Source: Nephromyces sp. MM_2019 (lineage: Eukaryota > Apicomplexa > Aconoidasida > Nephromycida). Taken from it: DNA of 64,000 nt. A program made the translations under genes and the position numbers. The notes under the pieces are model-generated. The model was not told the origin of the DNA and did not search any database. It was given only the letters and a program-made list of their open reading frames with translations. Location of the stretch: NCBI GenBank assembly GCA_015657535.1, contig JADHZB010001445.1:52389-116388 (forward strand). Reading direction: 5' to 3'. This document shows positions 17,532 to 64,000 of this stretch, one piece after another (position 1 is the stretch's first letter; the number at the start of each line of letters is the position of its first letter).

Positions 17532-17890
17532 GTATCGTCTCATGCGAAGCCACTACTGATCAAAATTTTCATCAATGTGGCCTCAAAATGCATGCTCGCA
17601 TCTTTAAAAAAATTGAGTTTAGCTCTTTTTGTATTTCTATTGCCTAACCGGATACCGACACGTCTAGCGTAAGTACTATTGTCCTCACCAGGTTTAGTGA
17701 AGATACCGTTTTCTTTTCCAATGACGTAATTAAAAAATGGTGTTTTTTCCCCAGTTTTCCATGTGCATCAAAAAATGAATACCACTGAGTCTCCTGCTTG
17801 AATTGCGAATCGCTCCTATTCAGCGTCGCTTGCTGCATACCCCCTCTTTCCCATAGACGGCGCAATCACAAGGTTGTTACGCCTGGCATA

Positions 17891-18712
17891 ATGCCTGGCG
17901 TTAAACCTGCCTTTCCGGTTGGAGGTGCTTCGACGGAAAAATCTAACGATGCGAACACCGTAAAATCCAATGCTGCAAAATTAAGAGCTGAGGCAATGAG
18001 CCTTAGCCCGGAGTTCCCCCCTTTTTTCGATTTCCCACCCTTCTTCTACGTACAACCACACGATCTCACAAGAAATTGGCAGCTGAGGGAATGGATGCGC
18101 TTTGTTGTCGATTATTGCGCCCGTAATGATATCTTATTTATTGAGATAGCAGAGATATCAACTCAGAAACTCCCCTTCAAGAACGAACAAATTGATAGGT
18201 CTCTATCACTTTATGGGCTGTGCTTGGTTGCTAAAGCGCTTATTGAAAATGGTCTGGCTTCTCCGGATGTAAGCGGAATTGAAAGAGGCGCTTTGATTCA
18301 CAAGCAAGCACTCGATCTTTTGTTCGCTGGTGATTCGCTACGTAGGGGTAGCGGCGAGGTTGGATTGCTTTCTCAAGTAAAGCAGGATGACAATAAAGAA
18401 GACGAAGTGAAAATAGGTGGAAGCGGAGGATTCTCCTTAAAGAGGAATGATCGAATATTGCTTTTCAAAAAGAAAATATTGGAGTGCGCGGATGATATTT
18501 TTAGCTGGGCATTATCTACTGGCCGCCTTAATGTAGTGGAAACTATTTACGGTATTCAACATGGAAGCGACACTGTTGGGGAATCGTTTCACGCGTTAAC
18601 AACAACCCATATAATGCTTTTATTGAATGTCTTGAAAAGGCAAGGAAAGGCTCAAACCTTTGCAAATGAAGCCAATCCTGGTGTTACTGGTGTAAAGTTT
18701 TTCAACAACTGA
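17891..18712 (+). CDS. VPS25: ESCRT-II subunit VPS25
   Basis: VPS25 is the two-copy subunit of ESCRT-II, which links ubiquitinated cargo sorting on endosomes to ESCRT-III through Vps20. The ORF contains the family N-terminus, FPPFFYVQPHDLTRNWQL (PPF motif and the TR..QL segment). A first winged helix follows, and a second winged helix with FSWALSTGRLNVVETIYGI, ESFHALTT, LLLNVLKRQGKA and the terminal GVKFF, all matching conserved VPS25 positions. From ATG 17891 it has 273 residues, against about 176 in human. The excess is a Ser/Lys-rich N-terminal extension and an insertion of roughly 55 residues (Gly/Asp/Lys-rich) between the winged helices. ATG 17996 would remove most of the N-terminal extension. 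No intron is needed within this frame. Presence of ESCRT-II is informative for lineage, since most apicomplexans lack it. Confidence 0.93.
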   Translation: MPGVKPAFPVGGASTEKSNDANTVKSNAAKLRAEAMSLSPEFPPFFDFPPFFYVQPHDLTRNWQLREWMRFVVDYCARNDILFIEIAEISTQKLPFKNEQIDRSLSLYGLCLVAKALIENGLASPDVSGIERGALIHKQALDLLFAGDSLRRGSGEVGLLSQVKQDDNKEDEVKIGGSGGFSLKRNDRILLFKKKILECADDIFSWALSTGRLNVVETIYGIQHGSDTVGESFHALTTTHIMLLLNVLKRQGKAQTFANEANPGVTGVKFFNN

Positions 18713-52143: not shown

Positions 52144-55100
52144 TCATTTTTTTCTTAAAAAATCACTTGAAAATTCGCTAACCTCTTGGCTTAGTTGACT
52201 TTTATCAACAGCAGCATCACTTCTTCCTTGCAATGATGAACTTCCCGCTTGTAATGCTGAGCTCCCTCCTGTTGACACACTATTCACTGGCTTCATTTCC
52301 TCCGCATACTGCACACCGCTGACATTTGCTGTGCTGCCATTCTGCACCTCTTCAGCTTCAGCCTCCAAATCAACGGATGCTCCTGTTACACTGTATTTGC
52401 TGCTGGCATCATCCTCACTATCAAATTCCTCACTCAAATCATCGTAACTGCTGCTACTTGAAGAGGAAAGGCTATCATCAAAATCAATGTCATCCTCCCC
52501 CGGTTTCTCACCAGGATTATTAGCTTCTTTCGTCAAATCTGCATTCCTTTGGTGCGTTTTACCCTTTGAATTTTCCGCTTCCTTACCCTCTGGGTACTTT
52601 GCTATCCCTCCTCCTGCATAACTCTGATCTACGGCAGCCTCTATAATCTCTAGTCCCTTGTGTGTTTTTCGAACTATGGGGCCTTGGTCTTTGCTAGAAA
52701 CTAGCACATTCTGACGGAAGGACTTCTCTTGCCACTCCGCCCTTTCTTTCTGCAGAGAAGAAGGTGCGAGGGACTGCGCATCTGCATTTACTAGCTGAGA
52801 TAACGACATCTCACCAGTTAAGACTCTACAACGTAATTCTGTACTGTTTTCCCTTTGAAGATTGTTGTGTATTAGCAGAAAACGTTGCTTGAGGGTTAAA
52901 GACGTGTCTTGAGCCTTCTCTTGAAGTTTCTTCATGAGCTCCGTAGCAAGAAAGCGAGGAGAAGGATATTTTACGCAGTTTAAGCAATTCTGTGCCATCA
53001 GCTCTTTGATTCCAACGTTAAAATCCTCCTCTAAGCGTGTGATGTAAGCAGCACAGTCTGTTACTACCTGCTGCTTAGTCAAGGTCAGGGAAGAGGGTGG
53101 GAGGTGATGCTGCTGCATTGATTGCACACTTGTGTTGATGGAAAAAGGTGCAGGAAGAATTTGATGCCTCTTTCTAGGGGGTGGAGCGTTTTTTGCCGGC
53201 CGATTCGACAGATTTGATGATGCAGCTGAGCTTTCTTCAGATGACCCAGCAAGAGAGCTGAGTGATGATTTTGGTTGGTTCTCAGAACCAGAAAGCTGCG
53301 CATCAGAGTGGGATTTCTGAAGTTCTTTAGAAGGTGGCTTCCTCTTCCTTGAAGGCTTTTCAATCATCTTCATCGAAGAAGAAGTTGACGCAGCTTTTTC
53401 TTCTCTGACTTGAGGGAGGTGTTTCGCACGCTGCTGAGGTGTGGGGACTGTAGGAGGAGAGATAGCCTCTATTTCTTTCGCGGGTAAAAATCGATGGGGA
53501 GACTGATCTTTCTCAAAGACTGGAGGTGAACCTCCTTTGCTAGTTGGCAACTTCAGCTGGGTAGAAGATGAGGTAATAGCGCTTGAAGCTTCTTGCAATG
53601 CCGGAAGCACCTTTTGTCCTGTGTTAGTAACAATGGCCTTGCTCATGAGGGAAGGTAAACTTTGGGGTAACTCAAGCTCTTCAGCTTTATTTTTCAAACT
53701 GGAGCTGGGAAGAAATGATGATGAAGCAGATGGTGTAACACTCTCAATGACCGAAGAAGACAAAACAGCCGGTGAGTGGGAAGCAGACTCATCTATTGCC
53801 TCAGCTTTAACAGCTTCAGATGATACGACATGCAAACTAAGGGTTGATAATGGAGCGGAGGAGGGATCACTGGTCGCAACCTTCAGCTTCTGCTGTTGGC
53901 GCACTCTCGGCTTCCTTTGCCTCTTTGGTTTGCTCTCCGACGAACCATCTGCTAGAAAGGGCGCTGTCCCTGCTGAGTTCCCAAGCACATGCTTTGAGTT
54001 TTGCTGAGTATTCACATTGTTATATACCATGGATAAAGCCGAGGTGCTGTTAGATGAAGAATCCACTGCACTATCACCAATTTCCTGGACAGCCGAAGAA
54101 GCTGGCTCAGCGATTAGTATCCCGGTATTCGACTCCTTGCTTTGTGAAGGCTTTCTCACTCGCTTCCTAGGCTCCTTTCTAGCTCCATCAGCCTTCACCA
54201 GTCTCTTCCTCCGTTTCTTGCCGGTACCCAACGAATCAGTATCATCAGACCCACTAGCTTCATACTTGACGGTTATTTCACTCTCGTTCTTGCTTGGGTG
54301 AAAAATAGACCCATCCTTAACTTCGTTTCTCGGCTCCTCCTTAAAAGACTTCGCCGAAAAAACTCTTCCACTATTTGCACGAAGTGCATAGTGAGTGTTC
54401 ACGCGAGGACTCAGCGCCAATATAGCCCCAATCTTACAGTTCTCACACAAAAATGTGGTGTCTGAGTCCCTGGGGGATCTTTTGCGCTTCAGCATATATT
54501 CTACCTGGCCTGGAGCAGCATCGGGATGATAGCGATAACCACAGCCTCCAGTGCATTTGAGATATCGATAATCTGGGTTTCGAGGCACCAGTTCTGGTAG
54601 TGCATCCTCACGCCAGTCCACTATTTCTAGTGAAAGTTGTGGCCTTAAAGAATTGTCAGCCAGTTCGTAAGTCTGCCGGTAAAAGTAGATCTCTGCCCTT
54701 CCACCTTTTCCAAGATAGTAACTATCAAGCTTCAGAAATTCTTCATAAGGTAAAACCTTAACAACACGATGAATGCTCTCAACAGGGTTGTAGTCGGCGT
54801 GCTCTAACGAAAGGATAAGCTCATATCGGCTGTAGAGGCTGAGGTCAAGATTTTTAACATGCTCAGCCTTGAGATCGGAGGCATACCATGCCCATCTCAA
54901 GCAAACTTCAGCTCCCTCAGGAGGAGAAGAAGGAATAGCTTCTGGATGGAGTTCCTCATCGGCAGTGAGCGCGGGAACATTCACTGAGGGAAGCGGTAAA
55001 ACAGATGTTTCGCGTTGCGGGACGAGGGTTTTTTCAGGGAGCGTATAACCGATGATTTGTGCAATCCAAAAGCGGTTGTCTTCATTTCGTACTGCAACCC

Positions 55101-55152
55101 AGTCTAGCATACGAACTAACCCCCCTCCACTTAGATAGAAAAGAGAAGCCAT
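52144..55152 (-). CDS. Large chromatin/transcription protein: BAH domain, zinc-binding cysteines, TFIIS central domain
   Basis: 1002 residues in one exon from ATG 55150-55152 (MASLFYLSGGGLVRMLDWVA). Residues of about 16-165 match a BAH domain: VAVRNEDNRFWIAQI, RWAWY, then YSRYELILSLEHADYNPVES, a V-x-V strand and EIYFYRQTYE. BAH domains bind nucleosomes or histone tails. A zinc-type cluster follows (C200-x3-C204, then C236-x2-C239). Residues of about 697-820 match the TFIIS central (TFS2M) domain, which docks on RNA polymerase II: LTLKQRFLLIHNNLQRENST, ELRCRVLTGEMSLSQLV and LQKERAEWQEKS. Between them and after lie long Ser/Lys-rich disordered regions with AT-hook-like basic patches (KPKRQRKPRVRQQ) and an acidic Ser tract (DFDDSLSSSSSSSYDDL). 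It is probably nuclear and linked to polymerase II elongation or chromatin reading. PHF3/DIDO/Bye1 proteins combine PHD with TFS2M; here BAH replaces the canonical PHD. Confidence 0.88.
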   Translation of the reverse strand: MASLFYLSGGGLVRMLDWVAVRNEDNRFWIAQIIGYTLPEKTLVPQRETSVLPLPSVNVPALTADEELHPEAIPSSPPEGAEVCLRWAWYASDLKAEHVKNLDLSLYSRYELILSLEHADYNPVESIHRVVKVLPYEEFLKLDSYYLGKGGRAEIYFYRQTYELADNSLRPQLSLEIVDWREDALPELVPRNPDYRYLKCTGGCGYRYHPDAAPGQVEYMLKRKRSPRDSDTTFLCENCKIGAILALSPRVNTHYALRANSGRVFSAKSFKEEPRNEVKDGSIFHPSKNESEITVKYEASGSDDTDSLGTGKKRRKRLVKADGARKEPRKRVRKPSQSKESNTGILIAEPASSAVQEIGDSAVDSSSNSTSALSMVYNNVNTQQNSKHVLGNSAGTAPFLADGSSESKPKRQRKPRVRQQQKLKVATSDPSSAPLSTLSLHVVSSEAVKAEAIDESASHSPAVLSSSVIESVTPSASSSFLPSSSLKNKAEELELPQSLPSLMSKAIVTNTGQKVLPALQEASSAITSSSTQLKLPTSKGGSPPVFEKDQSPHRFLPAKEIEAISPPTVPTPQQRAKHLPQVREEKAASTSSSMKMIEKPSRKRKPPSKELQKSHSDAQLSGSENQPKSSLSSLAGSSEESSAASSNLSNRPAKNAPPPRKRHQILPAPFSINTSVQSMQQHHLPPSSLTLTKQQVVTDCAAYITRLEEDFNVGIKELMAQNCLNCVKYPSPRFLATELMKKLQEKAQDTSLTLKQRFLLIHNNLQRENSTELRCRVLTGEMSLSQLVNADAQSLAPSSLQKERAEWQEKSFRQNVLVSSKDQGPIVRKTHKGLEIIEAAVDQSYAGGGIAKYPEGKEAENSKGKTHQRNADLTKEANNPGEKPGEDDIDFDDSLSSSSSSSYDDLSEEFDSEDDASSKYSVTGASVDLEAEAEEVQNGSTANVSGVQYAEEMKPVNSVSTGGSSALQAGSSSLQGRSDAAVDKSQLSQEVSEFSSDFLRKK

Positions 55153-56954
55153 AATGGCTCAGATTGCAGTGTGTTTGTCAGAGCTTTTCACAATGTGTCG
55201 CGGCCTAGAGCGCACGAAAGCCGGCGGCTTTTTAGTTTGTATCCACGGCAAGTTCAAAATTCGCTTGCGAAAAGAACATCAATCTACTCAGAATATCCAT
55301 GTGCTCGGCGGCAGTAGGCGAGGAGATGAGGGTACACCAAACTATATAGATTTACAGCATATGCAATTAGTGAGATCGTAAGGAAGCCGTCTTATTCGAA
55401 AAATGAGGGTATGCGTGTTTAGAAAACTACGCTTGAATCGTTGCACTTCAAAAATAGAAAAGTAGGGAATGCTTCATCCCAACTGACGCCAACCTGTGAG
55501 ATACACTCTCATCATTTTTTTTACTCTTTGAAGGGCAAGGGGAAAATCTTAGCTAAAAGGGGTTCGTTTAGACATTTAAAACATGAAGTGGCAGGAATAT
55601 GCGGGGGAAGCCATTCAAAAGTGGGTGCCAAACCATGGGAACATTATATCATATTTGCCAAGCAGGCGAGGCTCCTTTTCGTTATGATTTCTAAACACTT
55701 TGGGTCTGCTGCATAAAGATACGCATACTTTTGAAACAGACACTAATGGTAAACTACGTGAGAGTGAGTGGCATCATCAGAAACTTAATGATATCCTGCA
55801 TGCGTGGTGAAAGCTTGAGATTTGCTGGACAGCAACTATTAATGAGGTAACTTCTTTTTGTGCATCCATCCACTATCACGCTACAGACTACGCGGCGGGA
55901 GTTAGAAATACATTCAGCATTACTCGAGGACTTACTTTCGGGTGTGAAGCTTAATTTTCATACCGTACAGTCAGTTCTACACTCCCGGTTCAAGAAGTTC
56001 GCCTTATAAGAGTAGCGATTAAGCTCTTCTTCTATTGTATACCATACTCTTTTCAATATTGAGAAGGCAACATTGCGAAGCGGCATTTACGTACATGTGG
56101 TGTAGGGGGTACAGAAAGCATCATATTTCTGTATATGGACCAGCAGGGGCAAGGCTTCGAGGTACGCGGCCCTAGGTCCTGAAAGTTTTTTGACTCAGAC
56201 TACGTCAATTGCAGTACTTCAGCGAAATTTCTGCAATCTGTTTTACCGGTCGAGTGTGCCGGGTAATACATGCACAGGGTAAGCTCTCTCAGGTAATGAA
56301 GCGGATATAAACGTGGAAAAAAGATGTCCTTGTCTTTTTCTCAGAACTTGAGGTACCAAGGACCAAGCCACCTGTTCATGTGGTTGTTGCATTTCTAGTG
56401 CACAGGTAGGAAACCCGAGTCCGCGGGGCTCTTTTGTATGTTGAGGTACTCACAGAAGCCACATTAATTCCATTGTAACGGACATCGGCAAAAGCTTAGG
56501 GGTCATAAATTTTGGAAGCACGTCCGGCGGTTCATGTACGCAAAAAAAAGTGGGGTCATTAGGGTCAGCATTTTTATATAATGGCAAAAAGTGCATCACC
56601 TATTTAAGCTATAGAGGTGCTTCTAAGGAACATGGAATATTAGCGCATGAAAATCGGCGTGTTTGTTTTAATTGCACAGCTGCTCTACTATGAGCAAGAG
56701 GGAAACAGTGGTTTTGCATTTTGGAGCTTTTTCAGAATATGTAACAACTTGCAATATATCATTCAATATTTGATTAAATAATAGAATAAGAACAAGTTTG
56801 TTGTTTTTCGCTTGTTTTATACTATCTCCGTGTTTGAGACAAAAAATTGAATAATCAGTAACAAATTTCTAGTTTTTTGTAAGCGATGTACCACTCCGAT
56901 CTTGAAAAAAAATCTTTTTCGGTAAATATTACGTTTGGCTTTGCCAGTTCGTAG
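55153..56954. other. Spacer with no supported gene
   Basis: A + strand ORF begins 2 bp after the BAH gene's divergent ATG (55154-55381) but shows no family content and probably reflects the shared promoter region. Short polar open segments (for example around 55720-55808, GKLRESEWHHQKLNDI) lack splice support. I looked here for a lipoyl domain belonging to the E2 fragment downstream and saw none. Confidence 0.4.
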
Positions 56955-57297
56955 GTCTATCCTCCTTTTAGCATCAGACTAGGTTTTACCCCAAGAAGAA
57001 TTGCTCGACAGAAAAATCTGAATATTTCTGTTATTAAAGGAACAGGGCCTAAATCGATCATTGTTAAGGATGACATATTAAGTTTTTTTAAACAAGAAAA
57101 ATATTTATGTAGATCTCAAAGTGATGTTAGAAATTCTGAGTTGTATAAAGAGGAGTCTGTTAGCAATATACATAACGTTATTGCACAAAAGCTAGTAGAA
57201 TCTAAGTCTAATATTCCTCATTTTTATCTTTCTGCGGAGTCCGGTTTTTTCATTCCTGTGAACTACCACGATTTCTGTATTTTCTCCTGGCAATGAG
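56955..57297 (+). pseudogene. Fragment of pyruvate dehydrogenase E2 (dihydrolipoamide acetyltransferase)
   Basis: One uninterrupted + frame encodes the E1/E3-binding (PSBD) domain: TPRRIARQKNLNISVIKGTG, then PKSIIVKDDILSFF. After a linker of about 30 residues it gives the start of the catalytic domain: SVSNIHNVIAQKLVESKSNI then PHFYLSAE. The GTGP, the (I/V)xKDDI, the I...IA.(K/R)L.ESK and the IPHFYL signatures are those of PDH-type E2 of mitochondria and alphaproteobacteria, and differ from branched-chain E2. Similarity stops at about 57237; the frame then runs unrelated text to TGA 57295. I saw no lipoyl domain upstream and no rest of the catalytic core (no DHRxxDG) downstream. The stretch is more AT-rich than its flanks. 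It is either a truncated insertion (mitochondrial or endosymbiont origin) or one exon of a dispersed nuclear E2 gene. Confidence 0.8.
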
Positions 57298-58736
57298 CAG
57301 TCTATATTTAGTACTTTCTGGGGTTTTTCTCTAGCTTTTTAACCACTGTTACTTTTATATGCCACTCTGGGTGCTCATTCTCTCGTTCTGAGAGCTTGTT
57401 TCACTTTACAACTTTGTACGAGTGTTTGAAGGAGTCATTAGGTGTGTCCTGTGCTTAGAAGGCTTGTTGCTCACCTTGAGCACTCTTTTTAACTAGTTTC
57501 CATGCAGTGGGTATCATCAGGCCTGAGTAGCGGGAAACTGTAGAGAATAATATGATGATTATACTGAGCAAATGAGGAACCTGGAGCTTTTAAATGTAGA
57601 ACCTTGCAGGGAAGGGACGGTTACATCTTTGTGAACAGCATCACAAATTATTTTCATGATGAAAGGCAAAAAGTACCATTAGCTTGCAAAAAAAAAGATT
57701 GCCAATGAAGCAAAAAGCATTGTTGGCTTGCGGCAAACAGTTGCTCTTTTATCATAACTGGCTTCGATTTCCGGGCGCGTTTATAGCGTGAAATGGACTG
57801 AATATTTCATTAGATAAAAAAAGCTGCAGAAACTTGGCTTAATGCTTGTTTAGAATAAGAATTAAGAAATTTTTTTTGCCCTACTGAAATTAACTAATAT
57901 AGTATTAGCAGCATAGCTACATCCTAGGTGATGTAGAGCTGCATATTTTAGATAGGATTTCTTAAAATGTAGACTATTTCAAACAATGCATTGCTTTAAA
58001 GGCGATTTGATTATGCATTACACCAACTAAATGTGTGTGCAGCACTTGTTCTATGGCAGCCTGCGCCGAGCTGCCTATTATTTTGATTAAAAAAGGTTTT
58101 TTGGCAGCTTCAGATTAGACGATTTTTAGTCAAAAAAAATAATATTTTTTGCGCAGGCAATAATTGCACTCTTTTTGCTGGATTTTAGTATATTTACACG
58201 AATTGGAAGCGGGTGCTTCGCCTGTAAAGCTTGGTAACATATCCTCAGAATAATAAAACTTCACCCGAATGGTAACTCCACTTTTTTCTGTTATTGCAAA
58301 GCTTTGAATATATTGAAAAGTATAATTCAATTCTCTCAATAAGATTATGCCGCTACGTCATTATCTAATCTAATCCAGATATATGTATATAAGATTGTGT
58401 TTTATTTTGTACTAATTTGACATTAATTTCACGCTTTTTGCCCTGGTCAGAAACAGGAAAACATTTCTGTTGCTTTTAAACGGAGAAAAAATTCACAAGC
58501 AAGACTTAATCAGGGCCACGCTTATGAATTTCCTCGAGACTTGGATAGGTGTAGCATCATAAGCTGATATTTCATAGAGTGCTAGTGACCTGAGCCAGAT
58601 TTTTTCCTTTCAAGGTTCCCCTCCTGAAGCTATTTCATGAGGAAAATTTGAACTTCGCTGCAGTTTTTTTTGTAAAAAAAATCCCTTAATTGATGGAATA
58701 TCCGGTCATTGCAAATGCCAATACGATTAAGTTAAA
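57298..58736. other. Stretch without a supported gene
   Basis: Searched by eye for the missing E2 catalytic core without success. One segment after ccctggtcag near 58451 (ENISVAFKRRKNSQARLNQG) is open up to a GT about 100 bp later and could be an exon, but nothing flanks it. Confidence 0.35.
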
Positions 58737-58982
58737 ATGATACAAAAGGCCGATGCTGCCACTTATTTCTCGTTGCTCCAAAACGAAAACTATGCTATTG
58801 ATAAGAGGAAAGCATTACCATTTGAGTTAGAATACCCCGGCGAGCTTTTTAAAGATTATAATGCACATTTGCTATGTTTTAGCTGCACGTCATTCGCATC
58901 ACGGATAGTGACCTGGTTTTTGCGCGTGAGTAAAGGGAAGGTGCTCCTACCATGTATGTTATTGGGCGGGCAAAAATGTTAG
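58737..58982 (+). CDS. Candidate first exon or short ORF (81 aa)
   Basis: ATG 58737 opens MIQKADAATYFSLLQNENYA, then DKRKALPFELEYPGELFKDY, which is balanced and soluble-protein-like. The second half turns Cys/Phe-rich and may already be intronic, with TAG 58980-58982 reached by read-through. No family recognised and no clear donor. Confidence 0.35.
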   Translation: MIQKADAATYFSLLQNENYAIDKRKALPFELEYPGELFKDYNAHLLCFSCTSFASRIVTWFLRVSKGKVLLPCMLLGGQKC

Positions 58983-60753
58983 TTATCAGCAACTTCACTG
59001 ATAGTCTGCAATAAATTTCATTTATACTTCCGAGTTACGGACGGCGCCACTTTATATCTCATTTTTTGAGTTTAGTTCTTAATGTGAACACGCAGGCAGC
59101 AGTATCAGTAGTGGTTACACTGATTAGCATTAGAATTCGCTACAGTGGTAGTGGTAGCTATAGATAAAGCAGTGGTAGCTGTAGTGCTAGTAATTTTGCT
59201 TTAGGGGAAGCTAATGATCGACTTTATGTGGTGCTATTTCATGGCATTAGGGTGTGCTATTTAATGATATTACGTGGTTCTAGTAGTTAACTTTATTTAT
59301 TGCTATTTAAGGACTTTACTTTACAAACCTGCTCAATTACCAAACGGACCCAAAAATACAACAAAATATTCACCCACTTTATACGCAGTCTTTCGCGCTA
59401 AAAGCTTCCCTATACCAAACCAATATCCACCTGTTGCCCGGAGAAAGGCAAAATTAGTACTCCTTTATTCTTTCGCACTTTATGATCTAAAGCAACTTTT
59501 TTAGCTAATTTGCATATATAGACGAATATATATGTATCTAAGCAAACTCTAGATGTGGGGCACAGTCTAAAAACTAGGGTACGAACAAGCTTCCATCTAT
59601 AGACCCCCTTGTTGTGAAAGTATGATATCACTTTCTCCATTTTGACGTTGCAGAATCTCTCTTAAATCGAAAGTTTTACTAGTGTAACAGACTATTAAGG
59701 TGCAGTTTAAATTTTCCAACGCAAATAATTTATATATTTGTACCTTTTTTTAAAACCATGGATCCTAGAAAGAGATAGCAAACTCTCGCAAAATCCCCCT
59801 TGGAAGCCAGAATCTCCTCTAGTTTACGCAAGAAAAACTTGGGTAGGATAAATTAATGGGGGCCAAATTTTCGGTGGTAGGGAGCGTTGTATCGCTAGCT
59901 TAATGGCAAAAGTTATGGTAAAATTTCTCTTTAGAAAAAAATTTTGGTTTAATATGAGGGTTGTTACATTTGTAAATACTCTATAGACAAGCTTCAGTCT
60001 CATGTTGCGCGGAGCTGGTTATATACCAGGTATGCTTTGGAATTTTTTATTTTGATTGATATGATGATTATTTCAATGGCTTAGCTATCGCACCTGTTTG
60101 ACTTCATGGTGGTAACTGGCCTAAAGGAGGACAAAAAATTTTTTATTCTTAAAGGACTACTTGTGACCGAATAGCATCTGATATCTTTAGTGGAGCTTAT
60201 TTTATAGCTTTGTGGCTTCACTCTATTTCTTGCTCGAAAAAGATCCTCTGATTGCGGCGAAAATTTTTTTTCTCGTGCAACTGCTGCCAGCTAGTAGCCC
60301 TCAAGGGGAGATGCAGAAATCCGCTTGAGCGAGCATAGCAAACAAGCTGATCAAGGGATTTTCTTTGTACATACAAAATTTTTAAGCATCTCATCATCTA
60401 TTAACGTCTTTTCAGTACTACGTGCAATTACCATTACTTGGATCCTTAGAATATATCGAGGATCCACTGAGTTTATTTGCTAACTTACACAGTAACGGCT
60501 AGTAGTTTATGTTTGTATTTCCGTGCATCTGATGACCCATGTGCGTATACAAAATCAGACGTTTTGCAGAGACTTGACTTGATAGCTGTGACTTAAGATT
60601 ACTCTCTAACGTATTATATGGAAGATGTAGCTTAAAGATGATCCTATATATATACCAGTGCGTGGTGTGTGTGTTTTTTTTTTCCTCTTTAGAATCTTCA
60701 CTTTTCTGAAAATCGATACCATTTTTTGGTGTCTTTTGGCTGCGGAAGATAAA
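58983..60753. other. Stretch without a supported gene; GTGGTAG(C/T) repeats
   Basis: At 59100-59200 there are imperfect GTGGTAGCTGTAG/GCAGTGGTAG repeats. A + frame, 59274-59504 (LPNGPKNTTKYSPTLYAVFR), is open but has no ATG near its protein-like part. The rest is AT-rich and stop-dense. Confidence 0.35.
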
Positions 60754-61192
60754 ATGGGGAATAAGGGTGATGAAAAGAAGGAGGAAGAATCGCAGGGACC
60801 TACTCCTTTGTTTCCTGAGATGGAGGACGGGGATTCTCCGTCATCACCATTGAAGGGATCTTCCGAGACTGGCGATGCCAAGATGCATTTTCCAGATATG
60901 TCTTTTTCTTTGCAAAGTAGGTTGCGTACCCGGGATTCAAAGGATTCTACGGATTCCGGGGACGTTGGATGGAATCTTCTCTTCAAGCGAGTAAGGAATA
61001 ATGAGATTCTCTTCTTCTTCTTTATGTTTTCTAGAAGGAAGATAATGCGATTTTTTTGCTTCCTTAAAAAATGCGCTGCGCAAGCGAAAAATCGCTGGGA
61101 TTCTCGAATCTGCGCTCAAGAATGCTCTGGGAACATGTTACTCTCTCCATATACTGCTTCTTGATGCCGTGCTGCATTTCATGTGTGATTAA
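60754..61192 (+). CDS. Candidate two-exon gene with MGN start
   Basis: Exon 1 (60754-60990) runs from ATG MGNKGDEKKEEESQGPTPLF through a Ser/Asp/Pro-rich region (EMEDGDSPSSPLKGSSETGD, SRLRTRDSKDSTDSG) to GWNLLFKR and a GTAAGG donor in phase 0. It is charged, disordered and clearly coding. Glycine at position 2 would permit N-myristoylation, although position 6 is Asp rather than Ser/Thr. The second exon is ambiguous. One option is a 44-nt intron with an excellent pyrimidine tract (acceptor ttttctag, exon from 61035, ten codons to TAA). The other is the acceptor gcgcaag at 61084, which gives an amphipathic helix (RKIAGILESALKNALGT) ending TAA 61190-61192. Function unknown. Confidence 0.55.
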
Positions 61193-62025
61193 CGCGGTTC
61201 AATGCCATTTTATGGGGTATTTACGTGAAGAGTAAGTGGAAAGCTTAGGAAATCAAGGCAGTAGAGGTTTATATCTCTTTGAATGCACCAAACTGCCTGT
61301 TTTTCACGTGCTACCTTTTTTTTCAACTTGAAGCTAATCGGAAACTGATTTTGCGCACTTTTTCATACTCTAGCGCTGAGAGGAAGAAATTTTCGATGAT
61401 TTTTTATGTTTAATAAAATATATATTCTTCAAATTTCACCTTTTTTTCGCGGTATTTTTCTACCATTCTCTTATCCTGAGTTGATTCTACTCGTTGAATT
61501 TTTTGTTTAGCTAAGGAATTATGCCATGCTATGAAGACAGCGGTAGCAGCTGTTCTTTTTAATGTGTCTATAAATACTTGTTCTGCTAGCTTCATAGCTT
61601 TCTTCGCTGCTCTACGGCGTTATTTTCGCTTAATCCTCCAAAGAAGTGATATTTTATGATATTTCGGTGTGTGTTTCGTATGTTCCTCTATGCTTTGTAT
61701 ATATATGTCTTCAAGTATTTGGTTCGTATGTGTGTGAGTTTCATATGTATTCCAGTGTTTCGTGTGGGAATGAATAGCCACTATGAAATCGACTGCATCA
61801 CATGCTGTTTGTGCGATTTCTCTTTTTTGCTTCGAAGTTACTAAAGCTCATCGTTATCCATAGTTTTGATTGAGCTTTCTGTTGTTTGACTGAAGTTCTA
61901 CTCGAATATCTTTTCTCTTTTCTCCTCCCTTTCTGTAGCTTCCTTGTGTGTTCACACACGTCTTCTTTGGCTATGCAAATTCGACGAAATTTCCTACTTT
62001 CTACTGTCTTTAAAAGGTCTTGAAT
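61193..62025. other. Intergenic-looking stretch
   Basis: AT-rich, stop-dense sequence between two + strand genes. No supported feature. Confidence 0.45.
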
Positions 62026-62202
62026 ATGAACAATGAGAAGATGGGAAGGGTTTCCTACTTTGATAGGCTTCAACCAGCCAAAGTGAGGAGCCCTTCAACA
62101 AAGGCTGCTTCGATTTCGGAACACGCCTACATTCGCTTGCAGCCAACCCGAGACCTTTTTCTCCACTCTGCTCAGGAAGAAGAGACTGTAGAAGTTTCCA
62201 GA
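62026..62202 (+). CDS. First exon of an unidentified + strand gene
   Basis: ATG 62026 (MNNEKMGRVSYFDRLQPAKV) opens 59 codons ending TVEVSR|GTAAGC, a strong donor in phase 0. The text is polar and balanced (RSPSTKAASISEHAYIRLQP, HSAQEEETVEVSR). The next exon was not found before the satellite at the right edge. A pure TG tract (62243-62262) follows in the presumed intron. Confidence 0.5.
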
Positions 62203-63532
62203 GTAAGCTCAATATGCCGATTGCTTTGAATATTAATAGCAGGCGTGTGTGTGTGTGTGTGCGTGGATTTTTTTTCTCGCTTTTTTGACCTGTTATGTAT
62301 GAGTAGATAAAAAGTACTCTTCTTGTGCGTGTTTTTTTCTGTGAATCATTGGCAATCTTATCGAAAGATAGCAATGTAGTGTACGCAAACCTTGCTAAAA
62401 AATTGGTTTTTCAGTAACCTCTGAGTATGGCGGTGTACTTAAAGTGAGATTTACTCAGTAAAGGTGATTTTTATGCTTCTGATTGCTGCATAATGTATTG
62501 GCCAGTTTTTAGTAGTTTGCAATGAAGTTTTTGAAGGCATATTTGATGATTTCAGTAAGAATTTTAATGATGAAATTATCGATAGTATTTCGCTGTTTTC
62601 GTGCTTAAATCTTATTCCCTTCTGCATTTACTTGACTATCACTTTCTGCGTTATCTTTTTTCATCCCACTCAGTTGTGCATGTAGATGTTTGCACAGCTA
62701 TGTAAGTACACCTACAAAAAGCAGCTATAAAAGCTTATCTACTCATGAATTAACACACACTCCAGAGAGAGCATGACATGACTTGAAGATGTTAAAATTT
62801 CGCAAGTTTTACTGAGGCTTCTTCTATTATTTGCATATTCATGCACTAAATGGATAGAGTAACAATTATTATAGCACTACTGAACTGCTCTTATTGCTGA
62901 TATAGGATATATTGAATGAGTCCTCGCTCTCTTTGTTTTTTTGAAAGAGAGTGTGTTTTTTTAAGGATTTGAGCCTTTTTTTTCATACACTTAATCAGCG
63001 ATCTCTTCTTCATTTTCAGCTTCTTTCCTGTCTTTATCTTGTGTGTGTGTAATGCAGAAAGTAAAGGCATTTTCACTGTGTCTTCCTAATGAGCAGGCAG
63101 TTTTTTTAGTTTAAGTAGAAAGCAAAGGGGGGAAGAATAAGGATTTTCTTTGGTAGTAGACTGCTATCGTCTCATTCAATGATTGGAAATTTATGCTTTT
63201 TAGCATTGTATAAGGGCTTTTATATGGCTGCTGCTTAAGAATAGCCGGAATACACTGGAATTTTTTGATTGTGTGGTGAGCAGTAGAAACATACGCACAC
63301 ACATACATACAGGTAGTGGGTGATGGTGTTTCGCTTTTATATGAAAGATGGATCGGCAGAGAAGGAAACTCGCAGTTTATGTTAATTTTTTCGTTCACAC
63401 ACCTGAGGAGTAGTATTACGCACACGCACGCTCGTGAAGTAGTGTTAAACACACACAACCTCGTGGAGTATCACGAGGTGCACACACTCCTATAGTACTA
63501 TTACGCGCAGATTGGCATTATAAAAACATTAG
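62203..63532. other. Presumed intron or spacer before the satellite
   Basis: A TG tract lies at 62243-62262. - strand frames (61994-62374, 63111-63458) overlap CA-rich DNA and are unsupported. No exon was recognised. Confidence 0.4.
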
Positions 63533-64000
63533 TATAACACACACATCACCCAGCATTACACACACATATCAACCAGCATTACACACATCAACCAGCATTA
63601 CACACGCATCACCCAGCATTATACACACATATCAACCAGCATTACACACATCAACCAGCATTATACACACATATCACCCAGCATTATACACACACATCAC
63701 CCAGCATCACACACACATATCACCCAGCATTACACACATCACCCAGCATTATACACACACATCACCCAGCATTATACACACACATCACCCAGATTATTAC
63801 ACACACATCACCCAGCATTATACACACACATCACCCAGCATTACACACACACATCACCCAGCATTACACACACGCATCACCCAGCATCACACACACATAT
63901 CACCCAGCATTACACACATCACCCAGCATTATACACACACATCACCCAGCATTATACACACACGCATCACCCAGCATCACACACACATATCACCCAGCAT
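63533..64000. repeat. CA-rich satellite array running off the right edge
   Basis: At least twenty tandem units of 17-23 bp with the constant core ATCACCCAGCATTA or its variants (ATCAACCAGCATTA, CATCAC), separated by ACACACAC spacers of varying length. Higher-order blocks of several units recur (for example the segment near 63705-63790 reappears near 63885-63965), which indicates recent block duplication. The array continues past the window. Confidence 0.93.

What the first reader, a model, noticed from the sequence alone, without database searches (positions are those of the whole stretch)
56955..57297. Orphan PDH-E2 fragment with alphaproteobacterial-type signatures
A single open frame carries the E2 subunit-binding domain and the first about 30 residues of the catalytic domain, then loses all similarity. 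Neither lipoyl domain nor catalytic core is visible in the flanks, and the segment looks more AT-rich than its surroundings. It could be endosymbiont or mitochondrial-type DNA fixed in the nucleus, a decayed nuclear gene, or one exon of a gene with very long introns.
Basis: partly seen in the sequence, partly recalled or inferred. Interest (0 to 1): 0.8.

Follow-up and report, generated by a model that had tools for sequence, protein, structure and literature searches.

The report
Fossil symbiont gene in parasite nucleus
A short broken-off piece of a bacterial metabolic gene sits in the nuclear DNA of a single-celled parasite (probably an apicomplexan), most likely a relic of an intracellular Rickettsia-like symbiont, and similar decayed pieces are scattered elsewhere in the same genome.

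Summary
Window 56985-57240 (+) encodes the E2 subunit-binding domain, linker and first ~32 residues of the catalytic domain (TIGR01349 E=1e-16); no other E2 part was found on its 116-kb contig. The best relatives found are Rickettsiales E2s (291 of 343 genomes match, best E 4e-18, up to 49% identity). The tree joins it to the E2 of the Cardiosporidium cionae endosymbiont (95/81), but AU tests leave its place open and do not exclude mitochondrial E2 (p=0.125).

The deciding evidence is genome-wide. The assembly carries a second E2 piece with stops (C684) and stop-containing pieces of SecA and DnaE, bacterial genes absent from eukaryotic nuclei as I recall. The contig is nuclear (ESCRT-II genes); plastid-type rpoB genes with in-frame TGA suggest an apicomplexan.

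Best explanation: a decayed nuclear insertion of Rickettsiales symbiont DNA, one of several, with no E2 function left. The kind is known (NUWTs, Volvox rickettsial transfers); limited searches found no report for an apicomplexan. Junction reads, donor and host name were not settled.

The parts
56985..57240 (+). Rickettsiales-type PDH E2 relic: subunit-binding domain, linker and start of the catalytic domain; stop-free, truncated at both ends
   Evidence: TIGR01349 E 1.1e-16; 291 of 343 Rickettsiales genomes match; GC 30.5%
56994..57080 (+). E3/E1-binding (PSBD) domain, 29 of 36 profile positions; conserved Gly-Arg replaced by Ser-Ile, and two residues missing between 'TP' and 'RRIA'
   Evidence: PF02817 E 9.2e-8; the Gly-Arg pair is kept in 110 of the 114 relatives in which the motif was found, of 115; alignment
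57081..57143 (+). linker, with 'RNSELYKEE' resembling the 'RNSQEFY' type of several Rickettsiales
   Evidence: alignments
57144..57239 (+). first 32 residues of the 2-oxoacid dehydrogenase acyltransferase catalytic domain; similarity stops here
   Evidence: PF00198 positions 4-35, E 0.0012, below cut-off
56955..57296 (+). stop-to-stop open frame around the relic (113 aa); the ends are not E2-like
52147..55158 (-). nearest recognised host gene: single open frame of 1004 aa with TFIIS central domain and a weak BAH match; its 5' end is 1.8 kb from the relic
   Evidence: PF07500 E 2e-10; PF01426 E 0.0097, below cut-off
17789..18712 (+). host gene for ESCRT-II subunit VPS25, showing that the contig is eukaryotic nuclear DNA
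   Evidence: PF05871 E 1.2e-24

Best explanation
The segment is a roughly 250-bp relic of a PDH E2 gene from a Rickettsiales bacterium that lived inside the host or its ancestor. Symbiont DNA entered the nucleus, presumably by end-joining at chromosome breaks (inferred), was broken into short pieces and is decaying. This piece happens to have no stop or frameshift; other pieces, including part of the catalytic domain of an E2 on another contig, have stops. It has no E2 function: no lipoyl domain, no active site, and the Gly-Arg of the binding domain is lost. Shown: homology, isolation, single copy, presence on a nuclear contig, other decayed bacterial pieces. Inferred: symbiont origin, mode of insertion, lack of function, host identity.
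For: The six best of the 80 loci kept are all Rickettsiales; one search finds matches in 291 of 343 Rickettsiales genomes, best E 3.7e-18. The linker resembles the Rickettsiales form. The tree joins it to the C. cionae endosymbiont E2, UFBoot 95 / SH-aLRT 81 and SH-aLRT 96. In the same assembly: an E2 catalytic piece at C684:74396-74701 with 2 stops, best hits Rickettsiales; a SecA piece C495:21739-21921, 40% over 62 aa, 2 stops, E 6.4e-6; DnaE pieces C760:23299-23487, 49% over 64 aa, 1 stop, E 1.9e-8, and C869:84407-84502, 47% over 32 aa, 1 stop, E 0.0015; on C684 a DUF2674-like piece with 2 stops and a UbiE-like piece in two frames. Reversed host DNA gives 0 of 1366 symbiont queries at E<=1e-3 against 5 of 1366 for the real DNA. 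VPS25, VPS22 and TFIIS-domain genes lie on the contig.
Against: The fragment is 88 aa long and AU tests reject no placement tried: mitochondrial p 0.125; other Rickettsiales or alphaproteobacterial clades p 0.31-0.63, two of these forced trees being likelier than the free one. Other alphaproteobacteria score close behind: Emcibacter is seventh (E 1e-15). There is no DNA-level match to the C. cionae endosymbiont at this place. No close donor was found (35-49% identity in the listed matches). 7 of 23 columns that are at least 90% conserved are changed, a level of neutral decay at which only about 0.5-7% of simulated copies stay open. The DUF2674 piece reaches no Pfam family on its own; UbiE has a eukaryotic homologue. 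Of the 5 queries at E<=1e-3, two (C11_39829, C2_179125) look like chance. Mitochondrial E2 was represented only by two mammalian sequences.
Confidence: 0.8

Rival explanations
1. Relic of the host lineage's own mitochondrial-type PDH E2 gene, lost when the branched-chain complex took over in the ancestors of apicomplexans.
For: The AU test does not reject a clade with mammalian mitochondrial E2 (p 0.125). The searches found no intact mitochondrial-type PDH E2 in the assembly but E2s of other types. The two E2 relics cover different parts of one gene.
Against: Rickettsiales score higher (up to 65.7 bits; mammals 40 bits; not strictly the same search). A loss before the apicomplexan radiation (recalled) should leave no recognisable relic. 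It does not explain the SecA and DnaE pieces.
Confidence: 0.08
2. One exon of a working gene with long introns, or a domesticated binding-domain peptide.
For: The frame is open. An acceptor-like 'ttttag' lies at 56966-56971 and a GT at 57244-57245 (sequence). Neutral copies this decayed would rarely stay open.
Against: No partner exon found on 116 kb; Gly-Arg and two further residues of the domain lost; the catalytic piece elsewhere has stops; it came to notice as the best-preserved relic, so an open frame is favoured by selection of the case.
Confidence: 0.06
3. Assembly artefact: a bacterial read fragment joined into a host contig.
For: Junctions could not be checked. The assembly appears to mix several lineages (three plastid-type rpoB sets).
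Against: A chimaera would carry intact bacterial sequence. Here there is only ~250 bp with conserved residues lost, single copy, and related pieces on other contigs carry stops.
Confidence: 0.04

Closest known systems
NUWTs (nuclear Wolbachia transfers) used as records of past infections in filarial nematodes (PMC12693587; abstract and outline seen)
   Same: Pieces of a Rickettsiales symbiont genome inserted in host nuclear DNA; origins can differ from the living symbiont.
   Different: Host is a protist, probably apicomplexan; the pieces seen here are short and too diverged for DNA-level matching to the genome compared.
[quoted passage not shown] passages seen)
   Same: Rickettsiaceae-derived, mostly incomplete sequences in a green alga, from a donor that may since have been lost.
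   Different: There a block of about 9 kb with several genes; here isolated pieces of about 100-300 bp.
Alphaproteobacterial endosymbiont of Cardiosporidium cionae (PMC7737231; outline with abstract, Results part 1 of 2 and passages seen)
   Same: Its E2 is the tree neighbour of the fragment; it lives in an apicomplexan.
   Different: Only 44% identical here, so the fragment is not a recent copy of this symbiont's gene.
TIGR01349 / mitochondrial-alphaproteobacterial PDH E2 (DLAT)
   Same: Binding domain and start of the catalytic domain.
   Different: No lipoyl domain, no active-site region, Gly-Arg of the binding domain lost.

Membership tests
Nuclear transfer of symbiont DNA (NUWT-like) | Sequence of symbiont origin | tested here: met
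   Rickettsiales matches best; tree place not decisive; SecA and DnaE pieces in the assembly
Nuclear transfer of symbiont DNA (NUWT-like) | Lies on a nuclear contig among eukaryotic genes | tested here: met
   VPS25, VPS22 and TFIIS_M genes on the same contig
Nuclear transfer of symbiont DNA (NUWT-like) | Fragmentary and decaying | tested here: met
   Truncated both sides, conserved residues lost; other pieces with stops. This piece itself has no stop
Nuclear transfer of symbiont DNA (NUWT-like) | Junctions supported by reads | not testable with these tools
   no reads held
Nuclear transfer of symbiont DNA (NUWT-like) | DNA-level similarity to a sequenced donor | tested here: not met
   blastn of the 29 contigs of the C. 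cionae endosymbiont gives no match at this place; recent transfers show it, old ones or unsampled donors need not
Functional PDH E2 | Lipoyl domain plus complete catalytic domain | tested here: not met
   Neither found on C740
Functional PDH E2 | Gly-Arg of the binding domain | tested here: not met
   SI in the fragment; GR in 110 of the 114 relatives with the motif, of 115
Mitochondrial E2 of the host | Clusters with mitochondrial E2 | tested here: inconclusive
   The free tree places it elsewhere; the clade is not rejected, p-AU 0.125; only two mammalian sequences
Host is an apicomplexan | Plastid genes with TGA read through | tested here: inconclusive
   rpoB matches on C318, C1112, C1009, 5 of 9 with 1-2 in-frame TGA; plastid-type E2 pieces. 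That some apicoplasts read TGA as Trp is recalled; no 18S was obtained

The most novel reading that the evidence does not exclude
The relics are a fossil record of an ancient or replaced Rickettsiales symbiont in an apicomplexan lineage. The E2, SecA and DnaE pieces are 37-49% identical to the present C. cionae symbiont, about the average protein identity reported between the two living nephromycid alphaproteobacterial symbionts (47.6%, PMC7737231), so the donor may be a different, earlier or unsampled symbiont. Nuclear fossils could then date and identify symbiont gain, loss and replacement in apicomplexans.
Probability: 0.35. Interest if true: 0.65.

Novelty: new member of a known kind. Interest (0 to 1): 0.5.

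Why it matters
Bacterial endosymbionts are stated to be unknown in Apicomplexa outside the Nephromycidae (PMC7737231 abstract). Nuclear relics of symbiont DNA would give a direct record of how old that association is, whether symbionts were swapped, and whether other apicomplexans once had them. They also warn that open frames like this one can be misread as host mitochondrial genes.

Tried and rejected
Dead ends. Protein searches with the fragment alone and X-padded to full length gave no hit at E<=1 (3 and 50 candidates). A first genome-contig scan with the fragment alone confirmed no relative among 85 stretches. Host 18S (RF01960) searches did not complete, nor was one for bacterial 16S (RF00177). 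The host VPS22 protein found only distant homologues (12 proteins, best 37% identity), so it did not name the host. A first decay simulation used the wrong strand and was redone. No tRNA, and no Rfam match at gathering scores, in the window.

Considered and rejected: recent insertion of the present C. cionae symbiont's DNA (no nucleotide match there, 44% protein identity); part of a large continuous bacterial insertion (no other clear match on C740 from 1366 C. cionae-symbiont or 630 Wolbachia ORFs); repeat or transposon (single copy). I did not pursue a structure prediction of an 88-aa relic.

Not settled: rpoB matches on C709, C908 and C259 may be further relics but could not be read; C336 and C448 were not examined further. 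The mixture of lineages in the assembly was not resolved.

Full report
What is there. The frame 56955-57296 (+) encodes 113 residues. Residues 14-42 match the E3-binding domain (PF02817, E 9.2e-8, over its cut-off); residues 64-95 match positions 4-35 of the acyltransferase catalytic domain (PF00198, E 0.0012, below its cut-off); residues 14-95 match TIGR01349 at E 1.1e-16. Homology begins near 56985 and ends at 57239. That stretch is 30.5% GC against 40.1% for the window, as low or lower in 1.6% of 256-bp windows. The open frame as such is not remarkable: 8 of 760 frames in 57301-64000 are as long.

It stands alone. Own-genome searches with E3_binding, 2-oxoacid_dh and TIGR01349 found 4, 12 and 13 matches; on contig C740 (116,388 bp, of which the window is 52389-116388) this stretch is the only one, found by the first and third. 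A 1101-bp DNA query over it matches only itself (that search skips very common words). The other E2 genes of the assembly are of other types by my reading of their sequences: two branched-chain-like (C382, C960), a plastid-like one (C281, C412) and succinyl-type pieces (C210, C1033).

Relatives. Against the Rickettsiales order, 291 of 343 genomes match at E<=0.001, the best at 3.7e-18; identities in the listed matches run from 35 to 49% and no genome stands out. The linker 'VRNSELYKEESVSNIHNVIAQ' resembles the linker of several Rickettsiales (for example 'HRNSQEFYAVKNNNIRKVIAR'); those of mammals and of the four alphaproteobacteria are longer and rich in Ala and mostly in Pro, but some others, such as Emcibacter, match over about the same length, so the linker is a hint only. 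Mammalian mitochondrial E2 scores about 40 bits against up to 65.7 for Rickettsiales; the two searches are not strictly the same.

Trees. I used 67 of the 115 bacterial E2s collected, two mammalian mitochondrial E2s and the fragment. With these 70 rows the fragment joins L174 (SH-aLRT 96); with 56 rows, after dropping 14 long-branched, truncated, near-identical or closely similar ones, UFBoot 95 / SH-aLRT 81. L174 lies in genome G159, which has 29 contigs, 1,047,039 bp, N50 250,385 and N90 36,721. Those are the contig number, size, N50 and N90 printed for the alphaproteobacterial endosymbiont of Cardiosporidium cionae (PMC7737231, Table 1; its GC is printed as 29.1%, mine is 28.2% with Ns counted in the length), so I take G159 to be that genome. 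The branches are long, and AU tests do not separate this place from a clade with Rickettsia (p 0.55), Anaplasmataceae (0.34), a MAG clade (0.63), other alphaproteobacteria (0.31) or mammalian mitochondria (0.125). Two of the forced trees (Rickettsia, MAG clade) had a higher likelihood than the free one, so the free search had not found the best tree. The tree alone therefore supports only an alphaproteobacterial, probably Rickettsiales, origin.

A second E2 piece. C684:74396-74701 contains '...NRLRPDEIQQSWFNVAYLGIFSADQIYAIVNPPQSSILSASSM*ESCCDRLK*HDGKNTINLSLS', part of the catalytic domain, with two stops; the best hits are Rickettsiales E2s (37-39%, best E 1.7e-11) with other alphaproteobacteria close behind. 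Of 23 columns at least 95% conserved in the reference set, 13 are changed (background mean 2.0%; maximum 43%, in L176, a row cut short). It does not overlap the window fragment and lies on another contig.

Bacterial relics elsewhere. One own-genome search each was made with three proteins of the C. cionae symbiont. SecA gave 1 match, C495:21739-21921, 40% over 62 aa, E 6.4e-6, two stops inside. DnaE gave 2 matches: C760:23299-23487, 49% over 64 aa, E 1.9e-8, one stop; C869:84407-84502, 47% over 32 aa, E 0.0015, one stop. RpoB gave 15 matches: nine on C318, C1112 and C1009, which I read as plastid-type rpoB because five of the nine have in-frame TGA and the frames are long; two on C336; and one each on C448, C259, C908 and C709, which I could not read. 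Eukaryotic nuclear genomes have no DnaE, and SecA is confined to bacteria and some plastids (recalled); pieces this short with stops are not working genes.

Local scan with control. 1366 symbiont ORFs of at least 90 residues were compared with about 250 kb of host DNA (C740 whole; C684 120,000 of 121,043 bases; C412 nearly whole). At E<=1e-3, 5 queries matched the real DNA and 0 the reversed DNA; at E<=0.01 it was 7 against 2, at E<=0.1 27 against 21. The five are: the E2 query (both relics and the host plastid-type E2); a DUF2674 protein (piece at C684:19320-19443 with two stops; the intact protein scores 54 bits to PF10879); UbiE (C684:30763-30905, two overlapping pieces in different frames; the joined pieces score 24.7 bits to PF01209, cut-off 20.1); and two that look like chance. 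Against my reading: the DUF2674 piece alone matches no Pfam family, and UbiE has a eukaryotic homologue, COQ5. Pair profiles for 383 symbiont proteins gave only E2 pieces (C740, C684 and the host plastid-type one on C412) and UbiE (E 1.4e-5) above the best reversed hit (3.2e-4). Of 630 Wolbachia ORFs only E2 matched at E<=1e-3. So neighbouring bacterial genes are not visible beside the window fragment: it is an isolated piece.

Nuclear and eukaryotic setting. C740 carries VPS25 (window 17789-18712, PF05871 E 1.2e-24), VPS22 (C740:41641-42456, EAP30 E 4.7e-33) and a TFIIS-domain gene (52147-55158, minus) whose 5' end lies 1.8 kb from the fragment. These are the 3 of 9 scanned frames that pass a Pfam cut-off; one more has only a weak hit and five have none. 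The host is probably an apicomplexan: plastid-type rpoB with in-frame TGA, plastid-type E2 pieces, branched-chain-type E2s and no intact mitochondrial-type PDH E2 found; coccidian apicomplexans are described as lacking a mitochondrial PDH complex (PMC3593168, abstract seen in listing). Three plastid rpoB sets suggest more than one lineage in the assembly. I suspect a nephromycid, but assembly size (48.3 Mb, 1127 contigs) and GC do not settle it, and I obtained no 18S.

State of the fragment. Of 23 columns at least 90% conserved across 56 non-redundant references, 7 are changed (background mean 2.6%, maximum 13%): Gly-Arg to Ser-Ile, a two-residue gap, Arg to His in 'NIR', and two conservative changes (Ser to Thr, Arg to Lys). 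A simulation from the symbiont's own coding DNA gives a chance of staying open of 0.15-0.25 at 0.05 substitutions per site, 0.03-0.07 at 0.1 and 0.005-0.02 at 0.15. An open frame is thus mildly surprising for this one piece, but it came to notice because it is the best preserved; the SecA, DnaE and second E2 pieces all have stops. I take it as non-functional, with a small chance that some selection kept it.

How it most likely arose. A Rickettsiales symbiont released DNA in the host cell; pieces were joined into chromosome breaks, and later breakage and mutation left short remnants. Release and joining are inferred from how such transfers are understood elsewhere (filarial NUWTs, PMC12693587; Volvox, PMC4324946), not shown here. 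In the single searches, SecA and DnaE pieces cover 158 of 2064 query residues; if typical, the assembly would hold some hundreds of such pieces, but this is a rough guess from two genes.

Donor. The E2, SecA and DnaE pieces are 37-49% identical to the C. cionae symbiont. The paper gives 47.61% (SD 12.51) for a two-way AAI of 656 proteins between the C. cionae and Nephromyces symbionts. The donor could therefore be a symbiont as distant as that of Nephromyces, or an older, replaced one; added decay makes this uncertain.

Known or new. The kind is known. I found no paper on nuclear symbiont DNA in Apicomplexa in these searches: Cardiosporidium with endosymbiotic gene transfer (0 papers); Nephromyces with endosymbiont, gene transfer and nuclear genome (0 papers holding all four); and two looser searches of which I saw only the top of the list (10 of 174 and 8 of 52 papers). 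The library holds only open-licence papers, so this is weak evidence of absence.

Noticed in passing
G000 contigs C318, C1112, C1009: Three separate plastid-type rpoB genes, each with in-frame TGA, suggest at least three plastid genomes and hence several lineages in one assembly.
   Followed up: no
G000 C382 and C960: Two clearly different branched-chain-type E2 genes, with local GC 37% and 33%; consistent with mixed lineages.
   Followed up: partly
window 17789-18712 and C740:41641-42456: Two ESCRT-II subunits (VPS25, VPS22) on one contig of a probable apicomplexan; ESCRT-II is, as I recall, missing from well-known apicomplexans.
   Followed up: partly
G000 C709:23053-23127, C908:94634-94798, C259:874-1113: Short matches to bacterial rpoB (76% over 25 aa, 44% over 55 aa, 36% over 80 aa with one stop) that may be further symbiont relics; their DNA could not be fetched.
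   Followed up: no
C684:19320-19443 and C684:30763-30905: Pieces resembling a DUF2674 protein (two stops) and UbiE (two frames), on the contig that holds the second E2 relic.
   Followed up: partly
window 63537-64000: CA-rich tandem array (units of 23 and 88 bases) running to the end of the contig, possibly where the assembly broke off.
   Followed up: no
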